A DNA stretch of 58,644 bases, taken from IMG/VR virus record IMGVR_UViG_3300044714_000125, positions 1-58,644 of that record. One strand, 5' to 3'. The notes beneath the pieces were generated by a model that saw only the letters and a list, made by a program, of their open reading frames with translations, did not search any database and was not told the origin of the DNA. Below are positions 3,358 through 19,834 of the stretch, piece by piece (positions within the stretch are counted from its first letter, which is position 1; each line of letters starts with the position of its first letter). The translations under genes were made by a program, and so were the position numbers. The DNA is from a virus.

Positions 3358-3391
3358 TAAAGGCGGTCCTTTTCCAGGGATTGCCTTTTTT
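3358..3391 (+). terminator. Rho-independent terminator after lysis genes
   Basis: AAAGGCGG at the 5' side can pair with TTGCCTTT at the 3' side around an inner TCC/GGA pairing, and the hairpin runs into a T-tract. It begins about 30 bases after the endolysin stop and closes the lysis operon. Confidence 0.6.
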
Positions 3392-3627
3392 GTATAATCC
3401 TTTGAAATTTTGCAAATAATATTTTGTATAAATGCAAAGGATTTTGCAGATATTCATAGTCCTTTCGATGGGACAAGGCGGCACGAAGTTTAAGTACAGC
3501 CGGGCAGGAGGACGAATACGCGAGTTCCCGATAATCCTGCTGTCAGGGCCGCAACAGAACCGCTGCATGGGGTTCATACTCCGTTAACATCCCGAGCGCA
3601 CATATCTACCATCAATGAAAGGAATGA

Positions 3628-8379: not shown

Positions 8380-9123
8380 ATGTCGAACCTTCCAGCCCAA
8401 CAGGGCAAGTTTCAGCTTCCCAAATTACAGGATTTATACGAACAGCAGGAAATAGAACTCCTTTCGAAGTTTAACGACTTCAATAAGCTACTGAACGCCC
8501 CACCGAGGAAGGAATGGCTTTTCCCACATCCGACTGCCACAAAAGAAATTATCAACGCCCAGGGGCTGAAGGAAAAGGTGCCGGTAGAATACATTCCAAT
8601 CGGGATCATTGAATACCTCCTGACCTCCCTTTACATCAAATGGAAGCCTGAGATCATAAAGTCGGAGGTCATGGCTAATTCCATTGTTCTGACCGTTCGG
8701 GTTCACGTTCTCAACCCTATCACGATGGAATGGGAATGGGCTGACGGTATTGGCGCCGCCCCGATCAGAACGAACAAAGGGGCCAGCGCCACCGACTTCT
8801 CGCAGGTGCAAAGCTCAGCCGTTCAGACCGGCGCACCCGCGGCCAAAAGTTTTGCCATCAAGGATGCATGCGAATGCTTCGGTAAAATCTTCGGAAAGGA
8901 CCTCAATCGCAATGTCGAAATGGATTATCAGTCTATGCAGGAGGCGAAGTTTAAGGACATAGGCCCAAAGGAGATTCCGGTTGAACTCGCTATCGTTATT
9001 TCGGAGGCCGATGCCGAGGGCCTGGAAGCGATCATCAACGGCAACCCCGAATACCACAATCTGCCCTCCTTCAAGGAGGCTGTTCTAAACCGTCGTTCCT
9101 TACTCAAAAAATTCGCCGTATAA
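8380..9123 (+). CDS. Putative single-strand annealing protein, Rad52-like, 247 aa
   Basis: Residues about 70-190 show the layout of Rad52/Sak-type annealing proteins: a beta region (VLTVRVHVLNPITMEWEWAD), a Gly-rich strand (GIGAAPI) and the helix SFAIKDACECFGKIFG that resembles the conserved DA..R..FG helix. The next gene, overlapping by one base, encodes a RecE-type exonuclease; this pairing is the classic phage recombination module and is the main support. The protein would anneal complementary single strands during replication and repair. Exact SSAP family not certain. Confidence 0.65.
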   Translation: MSNLPAQQGKFQLPKLQDLYEQQEIELLSKFNDFNKLLNAPPRKEWLFPHPTATKEIINAQGLKEKVPVEYIPIGIIEYLLTSLYIKWKPEIIKSEVMANSIVLTVRVHVLNPITMEWEWADGIGAAPIRTNKGASATDFSQVQSSAVQTGAPAAKSFAIKDACECFGKIFGKDLNRNVEMDYQSMQEAKFKDIGPKEIPVELAIVISEADAEGLEAIINGNPEYHNLPSFKEAVLNRRSLLKKFAV

Positions 9124-10037
9124 TGGAAACGGTAGAAGAACTAAAACCCGGCGTCGAGCCAATGCCTTCCCGGTTAAACCTGATGGTCCCCATCATCGAA
9201 AAGATCATGCGGGGGGAAATGCGGCTTTCCTATACGGCGCTGAGCAACTTCATGGATAGCCCGAAGGACTTCGCAGATTACAAACTTCAGCGCAAGGAAC
9301 CCACTCCGGCGATGATCTACGGCGGGATGCTCCATTGTCTCGTCCTGGAGCCTGCCAAATTCGAGGACCGTTATTTTGCCTTCGATGATTCAGACAAGGT
9401 CGAGGAACTCAGACAGGGCGGGGCGAAAAACTCACGGGCGACGAAAGCCTATAAGGAATGGAAATTCATAGCCTGCGGTAAGGCCGGTGACCGGACGATC
9501 GTTTCCCCAAAGGACTACGCTCACGCCAAGATCGTCGCCCTGAACGTTATTCACAACCGGGCATCCTCAAAGATCATGCGTGCCTGCCCACGCCATGAGA
9601 TCCCGATCGATTGGGAGGATTTCAATTTCAACTTTCACGGCTTTATCGACCTCTTAGGAGACAAGGATATTGCCGACATAAAGAGCATGCCGGACGCCAA
9701 CCAGGATAAGGTCCAGCGGGAAATATGGTACAGGAAACTGTACATTCAGGCTGTTTTGTATCTTACCGGCATCCGGCAGGTGGAACAGCTGGCAGGGTTG
9801 CCCGAGAAGCAAAGGAATTACCATATCATTGCCGTGGACAAGCTCGGAGGGATCAGCGTCCATACCCTCAATGAGCGCCTTTTACGGCATGGCATTCAGG
9901 AATACGGGTATTACATGAAGCGGTTCAATTACGCGATCCTGACGGAAGCCTGGGATCAATCCTATGACTTTTGGAGCGATCAATGGGATGGGCTATTCCA
10001 ATGCGATAAAGCAGGTTGGATGTATGATAAAGAGTGA
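9123..10037 (+). CDS. PD-(D/E)XK exonuclease, RecE/YqaJ-like, 304 aa
   Basis: The domain begins with SYTALSNFMDSPKDF (residues 36-50) and GGMLHCLVLEP (67-77), whose His71 is typical of RecE-like phage exonucleases. The catalytic core is GFIDLLG (Asp176) followed by IADIKS (Asp185, Lys187), matching the D...D-x-K signature, then a helix with a conserved Gln/Tyr region (YIQAVLYLTG). It would degrade one strand of double-stranded DNA ends for the annealing protein encoded just upstream. Length fits the C-terminal nuclease class. Confidence 0.8.
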   Translation: METVEELKPGVEPMPSRLNLMVPIIEKIMRGEMRLSYTALSNFMDSPKDFADYKLQRKEPTPAMIYGGMLHCLVLEPAKFEDRYFAFDDSDKVEELRQGGAKNSRATKAYKEWKFIACGKAGDRTIVSPKDYAHAKIVALNVIHNRASSKIMRACPRHEIPIDWEDFNFNFHGFIDLLGDKDIADIKSMPDANQDKVQREIWYRKLYIQAVLYLTGIRQVEQLAGLPEKQRNYHIIAVDKLGGISVHTLNERLLRHGIQEYGYYMKRFNYAILTEAWDQSYDFWSDQWDGLFQCDKAGWMYDKE

Positions 10038-10040
10038 GCC

Positions 10041-10469
10041 ATGGTTAAGGTCGAGACCTTTGGGAAGATAGAGGGCGGAAAGCTATCGCTTCATGGGCGC
10101 CAACGATTCGAGCAGGAGATCGCCCAGTGTAAAAACTGCGAGGTAACGATCATCGTCAAAAAGCGCGGGCGCCGATCAAATCAGCAAAACCGATACCTAT
10201 TCGGGGTGGTGTACGCCAATTGCCGCCATGCTTTTCTGGACCTGGGCTACCGGATGGACATCGACAAGGTACACAGCTTCTTTAAGCGAATGTTTCTTCC
10301 GGAGCGGATAGTGGATAAAAATGGAACCGTCATCGGAGAGTGGGAGGGAAGTACGGCAGAACTCAATAAAGACGAGTTTTCTGAGTATATTGAGCGGATC
10401 AGGGAGTGGGCGGCGGATAATCTTTCGATAGACATTCCCGATGCCGACAAGACTTTATCGATCTTTTAA
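10041..10469 (+). CDS. NinB-like recombination protein, 142 aa
   Basis: Length and motif layout resemble lambda NinB (Orf), a single-strand DNA-binding recombination mediator: a beta strand (VTIIVKKRGRRS) leads into NQQNRYLFGVVY, close to the S-x-x-QN-R region of NinB, then helices and a C-terminal acidic/helical end. It follows the annealing-protein and exonuclease genes directly, completing a Red-like set. Similarity is by motif recognition only. Confidence 0.6.
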   Translation: MVKVETFGKIEGGKLSLHGRQRFEQEIAQCKNCEVTIIVKKRGRRSNQQNRYLFGVVYANCRHAFLDLGYRMDIDKVHSFFKRMFLPERIVDKNGTVIGEWEGSTAELNKDEFSEYIERIREWAADNLSIDIPDADKTLSIF

Positions 10470-10489
10470 ACAACAAAAACCCAAATAAA

Positions 10490-10789
10490 ATGGAAAAAAG
10501 CCAGTTTCACATTGTCAGGGCCGAGAAAGCCGGAGTATTTTTATGCAAGATCGTCTCAAAGGATGGCGATACTTATACCGTCAATTCCTTTCGTCGGTTA
10601 TATTATTGGTCTGGGGCGTTGGATGTTTCTATGCTTGCGAAGGATGGCGTTACCAATCCCCGTGCCTGTAAATTTTCCGTCCAGATGGGCGAGGATGATG
10701 TGTCTACAATTCTCAATGTGATCGAAGTACATCCGGTCTCTGAAAAAGCATTATCAATAATCAACAACGTGCCGGTATGGAAGCAATAA
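10490..10789 (+). CDS. DUF6948-like protein, 99 aa
   Basis: The pattern AGVFLCKI ... RRLYYWSGALDVSMLA ... NPRACKFSV ... ILNVIEVHPVSEKA ... VPVWKQ matches a small phage family annotated as DUF6948, in which a YW-GA motif and an Ile-Glu strand are conserved. Biological role unknown. It overlaps the next gene by 13 bases; in other phages this family is often next to glycine-repeat proteins, as here. Confidence 0.65.
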   Translation: MEKSQFHIVRAEKAGVFLCKIVSKDGDTYTVNSFRRLYYWSGALDVSMLAKDGVTNPRACKFSVQMGEDDVSTILNVIEVHPVSEKALSIINNVPVWKQ

Positions 10790-11598
10790 AAATTAAGAAA
10801 TTCCTATCCGGTTCCGGTTCCGGTTACGGTTCCGGTTCCGGTTACGGTTCCGGTTACGGTTCCGGTTACGGTTCCGGTTACGGTTCCGGTTCCGGTTCCG
10901 GTTCCGGTTACGGTTCCGGTTACGGTGACGGTGACGGTTCCGGTTCCGGTTCCGGTTCCGGTTCCGGTGACGGTTCCGGTGACGGTTCCGGTTCCGGTGA
11001 CGGTTCCGGTTACGGTTCCGGTGACGGTTCCGGTGACGGTGACGGTTACGGTTCCGGTTCCGGTTACGGTTCCGGTTCCGGTTACGGTGACGGTGACGGT
11101 TCCGGTTCCGGTGACGGTTCCGGTTACGGTGACGGTGACGGCTTAAAAATACAGTCTTTCAAAGGCGAGGCCGTTCATTACATTGATGGCATTCCCTGCA
11201 TTTTTTCTTCCATAAAAGACGAATATGCCCTGATCGAGGTTATTGATGTAAAAGACTTCGGACGGACTAAAATGTACGTCGCCAAAAAGGAGGGGCTTTT
11301 CGCGCATGGAGTTACACTTAAAGAGGCTACTGATCAGGTAAATCAAAAATGGATTGCCTCCCAAACCGTGGAGGAAAAGATTCAGCGGTTTAAAGAGACC
11401 TTCAAAAAAGGAATAGCCTATAAGGCCACGCTCTTTTACGAATGGCATTCGCTGCTGACGGGTTCCTGTAAGGCAGGAAAGGATTTATGGATTTCACAGC
11501 ACGATATCAACCTGGAATCGGATATGACGGTTGAGAGATTCATAGAACTGACCAGGTCGGCCTATGGTGGTGAAATTATCCGGAGATTGAGCGAATAA
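10777..11598 (+). CDS. Gly-X repeat protein with conserved C-terminal domain, 273 aa
   Basis: Residues 11-122 consist of 56 Gly-containing dipeptides in which every second residue is Gly and the partner is Ser, Tyr or Asp. A short start (MEAIKIKKFL) precedes it. The C-terminal 150 residues form a regular domain: AVHYIDGIPCIFSSI, then FAHGVTLKEAT, then FYEWHSLLTGSCKAGKDLW and MTVERFIELTRSAYGGEIIRRL. This domain matches a phage family of unknown function that usually lacks the repeat. The repeat is likely a flexible linker or an expansion created by slippage, splitting the natural N-terminus (KIKKF...) from the rest. Overlaps the DUF6948-like gene. Confidence 0.7.
   Translation: MEAIKIKKFLSGSGSGYGSGSGYGSGYGSGYGSGYGSGSGSGSGYGSGYGDGDGSGSGSGSGSGDGSGDGSGSGDGSGYGSGDGSGDGDGYGSGSGYGSGSGYGDGDGSGSGDGSGYGDGDGLKIQSFKGEAVHYIDGIPCIFSSIKDEYALIEVIDVKDFGRTKMYVAKKEGLFAHGVTLKEATDQVNQKWIASQTVEEKIQRFKETFKKGIAYKATLFYEWHSLLTGSCKAGKDLWISQHDINLESDMTVERFIELTRSAYGGEIIRRLSE
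10807..11142 (+). repeat. Coding hexanucleotide repeat, (TCC/TAC/GAC)GGT x 56
   Basis: Fifty-six tandem 6-base units in frame, each a TCC, TAC or GAC codon followed by GGT; only the last Gly codon is GGC. Apart from that there is no synonymous variation: every Ser is TCC, every Tyr TAC, every Asp GAC. This points to recent expansion by slippage or unequal recombination. Copy number probably varies between relatives. Confidence 0.9.
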
Positions 11599-11609
11599 TT
11601 TGAATGGTC

Positions 11610-11643
11610 AGCCGGGCCCTGATTGCGGGGTGGGCTCTTTTAA
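11610..11643 (+). terminator. Probable terminator after the repeat-protein gene
   Basis: AGCC...GGGCT with inner GGGCCC/GGGG pairing, followed by TCTTTT, beginning 12 bases after the stop. It separates the upstream operon from the structured RNA region. Confidence 0.5.
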
Positions 11644-12089
11644 AGTTCTTTGATCAAAATATTGCGGGAGGATTGCATTGGGAGGCGCCGGCGGCCTACG
11701 GGCGAGTAACGCGGTTCTGTTCCCTGTAATGGAACGACACGATTCGTTAAAACAAGTGGCGTGGGTACTGAAAATACGTAACCAATCGTATACCACTACG
11801 ATGATGCAAAGACAGGGACCGCAATCTTCTTAAGTGCTGGCGGGTAAGCCGCGGGAGCCGCAATCCTTCCCAACTCCTTCGGGTGGCTGGACAAACTGCG
11901 GTGGCGACGTGGAAAATTAGAAAAAGCGGACACGTACGGTCGGTTGCTCGGACACAGAAAGCAAAGTCGCATTGAGACTTAAAACGATGATCGGAGCAAA
12001 ACCGTCCGCCTGTATGCAGGAAAAACCGTGGCAAGCAGTTATCATCGTGTAACCGGTAAGATAGCGGGATTGCCTTTTTGCTCCGTTTT

Positions 12090-12161
12090 GGACGAATAGC
12101 TCAGCGGTAGAGCTTCTGGTTGTTAACCAGGCGGTCGCGGGTTCAATCCCCGCTTCGTCCT
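12090..12161 (+). tRNA. tRNA-Asn (anticodon GTT)
   Basis: Full cloverleaf: acceptor GGACGAA/TTCGTCC (12090-12096 with 12154-12160), D arm GCTC...GAGC, anticodon stem TCTGG/CCAGG with loop TTGTTAA (anticodon GTT at 12122-12124), T arm with GTTCAATCC. No CCA is encoded. It starts five bases after the end of the pseudoknot in the structured RNA. Confidence 0.95.
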
Positions 12162-12326
12162 CACCGGCGATATTGCCGGCAATCTCGATTTGATGAAATG
12201 GGTTTTAATCGGTAACGGTTGGAATCTGGGGATTCAAAAAGGGACGGGTAAGACCAAGGTAAGAGGGTGGGTTATTCTTAATCCGCTTTTTGGTCTGAAC
12301 GTATTAGTAATATTGGATTTCAGTTC

Positions 12327-12358
12327 GGGCGGTGGTATTCCTGCCGCTGCCCTTCTTT
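12327..12358 (+). terminator. Terminator ending the tRNA/structured RNA unit
   Basis: GGGCGGTGG pairs with CCGCTGCCC (9 pairs including two G-T) around loop TATTCCTG, followed by TTCTTT. It marks the likely 3' end of the transcript that contains the tRNA. Confidence 0.6.
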
Positions 12359-12389
12359 AAAATCATTACATTCACTCAAAATAAATTCC

Positions 12390-13070
12390 ATGACAGAAAA
12401 TCAATCTCAGCTCGAAATAAGGGCGGTAAAGCTCAAAAGAAAAGGCGATGAAGGATTCATTCCGGAGATTATCGTTCACGATCCGGAGGCCAAACTCAAC
12501 CGGACCTACAGCGATTGCGAGAACCTTTGCCACTCCGATTTTACAAAAGCGGTCAGCCGCCTAAACCACCATATCGCGGTCCTTACCGACAAGATCACCA
12601 CCGACCGCTTCGAGGATGATAAGGACATCGACGAGATCATGGTCGCCAGGGGTTTCAGCTATTCCGGGGCTGAGATGGAGCTCCGGGTAACCTTGAAGGG
12701 ATACCAGAAGACCTCCCGCGGCGGCACCTTCCAGATCAATACCCCTGTAGTTTACATGGAAACGGAGGATGAGGACAAACAGTACTATTTCATTGATGAC
12801 CTGAAGGAAAAGCTCAAACGAATCGCCTTGGAGGCCCGGCTTTACATCTTCTCGGGCAAGAAATTCGAAGATCCCCAGCTGAGCCTGACACTTCCCGATC
12901 CGCCGGATGACAAGAAAAAGGTTACCAACGCCAAAATAGCCGATCCAATAGGAAAGGTAGCGGCTGAAATCGTAGCCGGCGTCAATGGGGCCAAAGACAG
13001 CAAAAAGAAGGGAGGAAAGAAACGCGTGGCTCAGACACCTGAAAATAAAAGCGGGGAGGCAGAGGAATAA
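12390..13070 (+). CDS. Hypothetical DNA-metabolism protein, 226 aa
   Basis: The N-terminal 150 residues form an alpha/beta domain (QLEIRAVKLKRKGDEGFIPEI ... FTKAVSRLNHHIAVL ... SGAEMELRVTLKGYQ). The C-terminal 50 residues are a disordered Lys-rich tail (GAKDSKKKGGKKRVAQ). Basic tail plus one-base overlap with a DNA methylase gene suggests nucleic-acid binding. No family recognised. Confidence 0.55.
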   Translation: MTENQSQLEIRAVKLKRKGDEGFIPEIIVHDPEAKLNRTYSDCENLCHSDFTKAVSRLNHHIAVLTDKITTDRFEDDKDIDEIMVARGFSYSGAEMELRVTLKGYQKTSRGGTFQINTPVVYMETEDEDKQYYFIDDLKEKLKRIALEARLYIFSGKKFEDPQLSLTLPDPPDDKKKVTNAKIADPIGKVAAEIVAGVNGAKDSKKKGGKKRVAQTPENKSGEAEE

Positions 13071-19690: not shown

Positions 19691-19834
19691 TTGGCTTATC
19701 TTCATTTTGCTTATCACATACGGTTTTTATGAAATTATTCACCTTCACAAGCTCGGCGCCGTCTGCACTTCCTTCCTCAAAAGATCGTTGTGATAAGCCT
19801 TTCGACGCCGGGCTTATGAAATCAAATACGAGCG

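What the first reader, a model, noticed from the sequence alone, without database searches (positions are those of the whole stretch)
11984..12085. H-type pseudoknot five bases upstream of the tRNA
ACGATGAT (11984-11991) pairs perfectly with ATCATCGT (12041-12048). The adjacent CGGAGCAAAA (11992-12001) pairs over 10 bases with TTTTGCTCCG (12076-12085), outside the first stem. The two stems can stack directly. Ten plus eight perfect pairs in this arrangement are unlikely by chance.
Basis: seen in the sequence. Interest (0 to 1): 0.7.

Follow-up and report, generated by a model that had tools for sequence, protein, structure and literature searches.

The report
Unclassified structured phage RNA before tRNA
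The paired sequences look like the 3' end of a so far unclassified, roughly 430-base structured RNA that a bacterial virus transcribes together with a tRNA, behind a start signal that in other phages precedes known stable RNAs; no relative of the RNA itself was found, so its fold and role remain unproven.

Summary
In detail: 8 + 10 perfect, directly adjacent, crossing pairs at the stated coordinates. It is the best such arrangement in the window. 10 of 400 shuffles of the whole window reach it, but only 2 of 20,000 shuffles of the surrounding 426 bases.

The interpretation changes. The pseudoknot sits at the 3' end of a 426-base non-coding stretch (11664-12089) that ends at tRNA-Asn and starts after AAAGTTCTTTGATCAAAATATT (11642-11663), a boxA-like leader also present in a related phage (L024). 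In 15 of 32 leader loci scanned with Rfam this leader precedes tmRNA, permuted tmRNA, tRNA or GOLLD, ten of them starting within 7 bases. All 8 GOLLD loci (7 distinct) carry GTTCTTT 408-504 bases upstream.

I conclude this is a stable structured phage RNA, arranged like GOLLD/ROOL cassettes but matching neither. No sequence homologue was found, so covariation could not test the pseudoknot, and two competing pairings exist inside the same RNA. A role in tRNA maturation is possible but unsupported.

The parts
11616..11640 (+). hairpin plus T-run: terminator of the upstream gene, or a hairpin just before the leader
   Evidence: terminator-like site with stem 11616-11631 and tail GGGCTCTTTT
11642..11663 (+). 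boxA-like stable-RNA leader AAAGTTCTTTGATCAAAATATT
11664..12089 (+). unclassified non-coding RNA; 5' end inferred from the leader, 3' end inferred from the tRNA start
   Evidence: no convincing ORF, no Rfam match
11666..11676 (+). 5' strand of the long-range helix closing the 5' domain
   Evidence: (I3); 5' domain z -1.96, 6 of 200 shuffles fold as well
11860..11870 (+). 3' strand of that helix
   Evidence: (I3)
11798..11805 (+). second copy of ACGATGAT, a competing partner for 12041-12048
   Evidence: I13
11944..11952 (+). TTGCTCGGA, a competing partner for the 5' strand of stem 2 (11991-11999)
   Evidence: I15
11984..11991 (+). stem 1, 5' strand ACGATGAT
11992..12001 (+). stem 2, 5' strand CGGAGCAAAA
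12041..12048 (+). stem 1, 3' strand ATCATCGT
12076..12085 (+). stem 2, 3' strand TTTTGCTCCG
12090..12162 (+). tRNA-Asn (GTT)
   Evidence: Rfam tRNA, 68.9 bits
12164..12179 (+). trailer hairpin CCGGCGATATTGCCGG, shared with L024 with one two-sided pair change
12327..12360 (+). likely intrinsic terminator of the unit
   Evidence: 11 pairs and T-rich tail

Best explanation
11664-12089 is a stable structured non-coding RNA of the phage, co-transcribed with tRNA-Asn as one unit (about 11642-12360). The nascent leader carries a boxA-like signal that I infer recruits host Nus factors, so that this untranslated transcript is not terminated early. RNase P cutting at the tRNA start would release the RNA with its 3' end at 12089. 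The crossing stems 11984-12001 / 12041-12048 / 12076-12085 fold the 3' domain and close the RNA's 3' end just before the tRNA. By arrangement it most likely works like the phage RNAs GOLLD and ROOL: an abundant RNA made during infection that acts as a particle or scaffold. Shown here: the pairing, its improbability within the block, the shared leader and trailer, the tRNA, the absence of a convincing gene and of Rfam matches. Inferred: transcription, Nus recruitment, RNA ends, pseudoknot formation, function.
For: Of the 32 leader loci I chose for Rfam scans, 15 have a known RNA behind it: 6 tmRNA, 3 permuted tmRNA and 1 tRNA starting 0-7 bases from the leader's end, 4 GOLLD with the Rfam part 408-479 bases on, and 1 tRNA 71 bases on. 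All 8 GOLLD loci found (7 distinct, since L100 and L055 agree) have GTTCTTT 408-504 bases upstream; in 4 of the 8 loci (3 distinct) the GOLLD copy was not the reason the locus was fetched. L078 has the same layout: leader, about 365 bases without an Rfam match, tRNA-Tyr. L024, a phage whose protein is 68% identical to the window's upstream gene product, shares leader, GCGGG start and trailer hairpin, the last with a C-G to U-A change. Pseudoknot: 2 of 20,000 shuffles. 5' domain z -1.96. Controls: tmRNA and GOLLD 3' halves also have near-neutral nested fold scores (-0.59 to -1.63), so the RNA's -0.47 does not speak against it.
Against: No homologue: none in phage records (19) or plasmid records beyond two 24-26-base hits (20), none by nhmmer at E<=5 in the loci held (63), none convincing in 43 leader-bearing phage records (82; the five places read lie in stop-free stretches of 345-900 bases, 85). 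So no covariation. The whole-RNA nested fold is no better than shuffles. The window's boxA tail departs from the consensus. 17 of 32 scanned leader loci have no Rfam RNA at that place, and many raw leader hits lie in coding sequence, so the motif alone is not proof. No tmRNA or GOLLD in my comparison shows so long an adjacent perfect pseudoknot; the best there is 14 pairs.
Confidence: 0.6

Rival explanations
1. The block is a real structured RNA, but the pseudoknot is not its fold: 12041-12048 pairs with the other ACGATGAT (11798-11805) and GAGCAA pairs with UUGCUC (11944-11949), or the two folds alternate as transcription proceeds.
For: Both competing pairings are in the sequence; the nested ensemble gives stems 1 and 2 almost no probability.
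Against: The adjacent 8 + 10 arrangement is rare in shuffles of this block, while an 8-base repeat in 426 bases is expected about once by chance (own estimate).
Confidence: 0.2
2. The complementarity is a chance feature of an unstructured spacer in front of the tRNA.
For: 10 of 400 whole-window shuffles reach 18 pairs; whole-RNA nested z is -0.47; no homologues.
Against: 2 of 20,000 shuffles of the block; stable-RNA leader at its start; 5' domain z -1.96.
Confidence: 0.15
3. The pseudoknot is a cis element of the tRNA leader that controls 5' maturation of tRNA-Asn.
For: It ends four bases before the tRNA, leaving a short single-stranded UUUU at the presumed RNase P site.
Against: In 10 of 32 leader loci the known RNA begins within 7 bases of the leader, so a 426-base pre-tRNA leader would be odd; the tRNA scores normally by itself.
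Confidence: 0.08
4. It is a very divergent member of a known family (GOLLD, ROOL, tmRNA, RNase P) beyond the reach of the Rfam models.
For: Same leader as phage GOLLD and tmRNA, tRNA next door.
Against: No Rfam match at E<=10 in 11550-12400 other than tRNA and four weak sub-threshold hits to unrelated families; GOLLD model silent over the whole record at E<=10; ARAGORN finds no tmRNA.
Confidence: 0.12

Closest known systems
GOLLD RNA (RF02032)
   Same: Phage-borne, untranslated, large, next to tRNA; boxA-like GTTCTTT upstream in all 8 GOLLD loci examined.
   Different: No model match; 426 bases against more than 800 for many members (passages of PMC12286853); no sign of the conserved 3' region.
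ROOL RNA
   Same: Phage or prophage RNA often near tRNA islands with several pseudoknots (passages of PMC12286853).
   Different: No Rfam match.
Phage tmRNA and permuted tmRNA (RF00023, RF04321)
   Same: Same leader; 5' end at the leader's last base or the base before it in 9 of the 32 scanned loci; pseudoknots (recalled for tmRNA).
   Different: ARAGORN and Rfam find no tmRNA here.
boxA of rRNA operons
   Same: GTTCTTT core matches GYTCTTTAANA (passage of PMC5725501); placed before stable RNA.
   Different: After the core the window reads GATC; that consensus was derived for gamma-proteobacteria; Nus binding not tested.

Membership tests
H-type pseudoknot | two crossing helices | tested here: met
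   complementarity confirmed; formation itself not shown
H-type pseudoknot | compensatory changes in homologues | not testable with these tools
   no homologue found
GOLLD | match to the RF02032 model (conserved 3' region) | tested here: not met
GOLLD | located near tRNA in a phage | tested here: met
   (virus record)
ROOL | match to the Rfam model | tested here: not met
   searches scanned all 4227 families, no ROOL row
tmRNA (normal or permuted) | model or ARAGORN match with tRNA-like ends and tag | tested here: not met
RNase P RNA | model match | tested here: not met
boxA leader | GYTCTTT core | tested here: met
   GTTCTTT at 11645-11651
boxA leader | AANA after the core | tested here: not met
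   window reads GATC (one of three specified bases fits)
boxA leader | NusB/NusE binding and antitermination | not testable with these tools
   needs experiment

The most novel reading that the evidence does not exclude
A new class of phage ornate RNA, perhaps forming an RNA-only particle, carried in a cassette whose boxA-like leader and trailer hairpin are shared between phages while the RNA inside differs. The leader would then mark a hidden set of unclassified phage RNAs (L024, L041/L087, L078, L101/L124, L127) beside GOLLD and tmRNA.
Probability: 0.35. Interest if true: 0.75.

Novelty: new variant of a known kind. Interest (0 to 1): 0.5.

Why it matters
Large structured phage RNAs such as GOLLD and ROOL have no known function (passages of PMC12286853). 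If the leader holds up as a marker, it gives a sequence handle for finding more of them, including ones that no covariance model can see, and it suggests that phages use the host's rRNA antitermination machinery to make them. The search listings I obtained show no title linking boxA with GOLLD or phage tmRNA; I read listings and, of two papers, passages only.

Tried and rejected
Homologues of the RNA: blastn in phage records (19, none) and plasmid records (20, two 24-26-base chance hits); 17-mer scan of IMG/VR (13, 7 hits, about what chance gives by my estimate); relatives by flanking proteins (11 none, 12 gave 13 loci, 21 none, 29 gave L024, 64 gave only the L002 record again); genome scan with leader plus GCGGG (45, one hit, apparently inside a coding sequence, 46). 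Of 9 relatives' records searched with the RNA and tRNA, two gave 14-22-base matches and seven nothing. L101/L124 looked similar by local alignment (z 5.3 and 4.7 among the leader loci), but a profile built from them does not hit the RNA (63): rejected. A TGCAGGAARAACCG string shared by window and L024 (77) was dropped, since 15-18-base matches to the same place turned up in long stop-free frames of unrelated phages. Idea that the RNA is a tRNA with an insertion: aragorn with introns allowed finds only tRNA-Asn in the window. RNase P and tmRNA were considered from motif look-alikes (recalled) and dropped for lack of model support.

Rows dropped: repeats of identical starts and stretches under 60 bases were skipped; repeated contexts were skipped.

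Full report
What was checked. The stems are directly adjacent on the 5' side, and the second ends four bases before tRNA-Asn. Scanning for adjacent crossing stem pairs (6+6 or more Watson-Crick pairs, span up to 150), the 18-pair arrangement is the best in the window; the next best have 15. In 400 dinucleotide shuffles of the whole window 10 reach 18 or more; in 20,000 shuffles of 11664-12089 alone, 2 do. So it is notable in its block but only modest as a whole-window find.

Where it lies. Between the ORF ending at 11598 and the ORF starting at 12390 there is no convincing gene, and Rfam sees only the tRNA (at E<=10 four further weak hits to unrelated families). The block begins with AAAGTTCTTTGATCAAAATATTG. 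I noticed this because L024, an IMG/VR contig found through the upstream gene (68% protein identity), has AAAGTTCTTTCAAAATATTGCGGG on its other strand about 1.6 kb from that gene. Both cassettes end in the same hairpin, CCGGCGATATTGCCGG in the window and CTGGCGATATTGCCAG in L024, a two-sided change of one pair. GGCGATATTGCC occurs in no other contig among the 151 loci (1,292,362 bases) held at that time; L001 is the window itself, and L026 and L031 are the same contig as L024.

What the leader means. Many are coding or chance hits. Of the 32 loci that I picked for Rfam, 15 have a known RNA behind the leader: tmRNA in L040, L048, L055, L100, L107, L110; permuted tmRNA in L042, L049, L118; tRNA 7 bases on in L088; tRNA 71 bases on in L054; GOLLD in L112, L115, L137, L142. 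The nine tmRNA and permuted tmRNA start at the leader's last G or the base before it, which is why I place the window RNA's 5' end at G11664. The other 17 have no Rfam RNA at that place: L041, L043, L050, L073, L078, L084, L086, L087, L093, L099, L101, L106, L116, L127, L139, L140, L144. All 8 GOLLD loci (7 distinct) have GTTCTTT 408-504 bases upstream of the Rfam part, including L054, L055, L073 and L100, whose GOLLD copy was not why they were fetched. The core fits the boxA consensus GYTCTTTAANA given for gamma-proteobacteria (passage of PMC5725501); the window's next bases, GATC, do not. That this is boxA in this phage's host is my inference, and so is a Bacteroidota host.

The RNA. 426 bases from leader to tRNA. 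The 5' domain closes with an 11-base helix, 11666-11676 with 11860-11870, 91% complementary, and folds somewhat better than shuffles (z -1.96, 6 of 200). The whole RNA does not (z -0.47), but neither do the real tmRNA (-0.59, -1.34) and GOLLD 3' halves (-1.08, -1.63) used as controls; one GOLLD 5' half gave -4.3 and L078 -3.06. With the pseudoknot, the 3' domain sums to -44.3 kcal/mol before any pseudoknot penalty, against -32.0 nested; the whole RNA -144.3 against -138.5. A penalty near 10 kcal/mol (recalled) leaves the 3' domain about neutral to favoured and the whole RNA slightly unfavoured. Competing pairings exist for both stems. Comparably long adjacent pseudoknots were not seen in 17 other leader-borne sequences (best 14 pairs).

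Relatives. None by blastn in phages or plasmids beyond two 24-26-base hits, none by nhmmer in the held loci, none convincing in 43 leader-bearing records. The sister phage L002 (88% identical in one protein) has neither RNA nor tRNA between the matching genes and no blast match in its whole record. The cassette was therefore gained or lost as a unit.

Reading. The most economical account is a stable structured phage RNA, made in one transcript with tRNA-Asn behind a stable-RNA leader, ending at a terminator near 12327-12360. It is organised like GOLLD and ROOL cassettes, whose RNAs form cages of unknown function (passages of PMC12286853), but it is not a member of either by any test here. The pseudoknot is best seen as part of this RNA's 3' domain. 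That it regulates tRNA maturation is possible but not indicated. Transcription, processing, the pseudoknot and any function remain to be shown.

Noticed in passing
L101:7543-8090 and L124 from about 3508: Two similar untranslated stretches of about 530 bases behind the leader, ending in a terminator-like hairpin with a T-run; no Rfam match, and L101's has no blast match in phages. Candidate new RNA family.
   Followed up: partly
L078:5418-5884: Same layout as the window: leader, about 365 bases without Rfam match (nested z -3.06), then tRNA-Tyr.
   Followed up: partly
L041, L044, L056, L087, L146 and L127, behind the leader: Further stretches behind the leader that look non-coding; L041, L087 and L127 have no Rfam match there, the others were not scanned.
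   Followed up: no
L027:2444-2650: tRNA-Leu-like gene behind the leader with an extra insertion between its D and T arms, not called by ARAGORN; a second GTTCTTT-led stretch follows at about 2650.
   Followed up: no
window 12090-12162: The tRNA-Asn body is closest to cyanophage tRNA-Val genes among phage records (81.7%) and the base after the acceptor stem is T: perhaps a re-coded valine tRNA.
   Followed up: no
window 12193-12360: Possible small protein of 55 residues starting at an ATG just after the trailer hairpin and overlapping the terminator-like site.
   Followed up: no
window 3383-3450: 68 bases 91% identical to L002 4498-4565, the only blastn match between window and L002 outside window 8399-10499.
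   Followed up: no
window 10777-11598: Gene with a long SG/YG/DG repeat fused to a conserved C-terminal part (relative in L024).
   Followed up: partly
window 19710-19798: Ten-base inverted repeat GCTTATCACA / TGTGATAAGC in an intergenic stretch.
   Followed up: no
window 11698-11714: ACGGGCGAGTAACGCGG resembles a conserved 16S rRNA string as I recall it; no rRNA model matches, probably chance.
   Followed up: no
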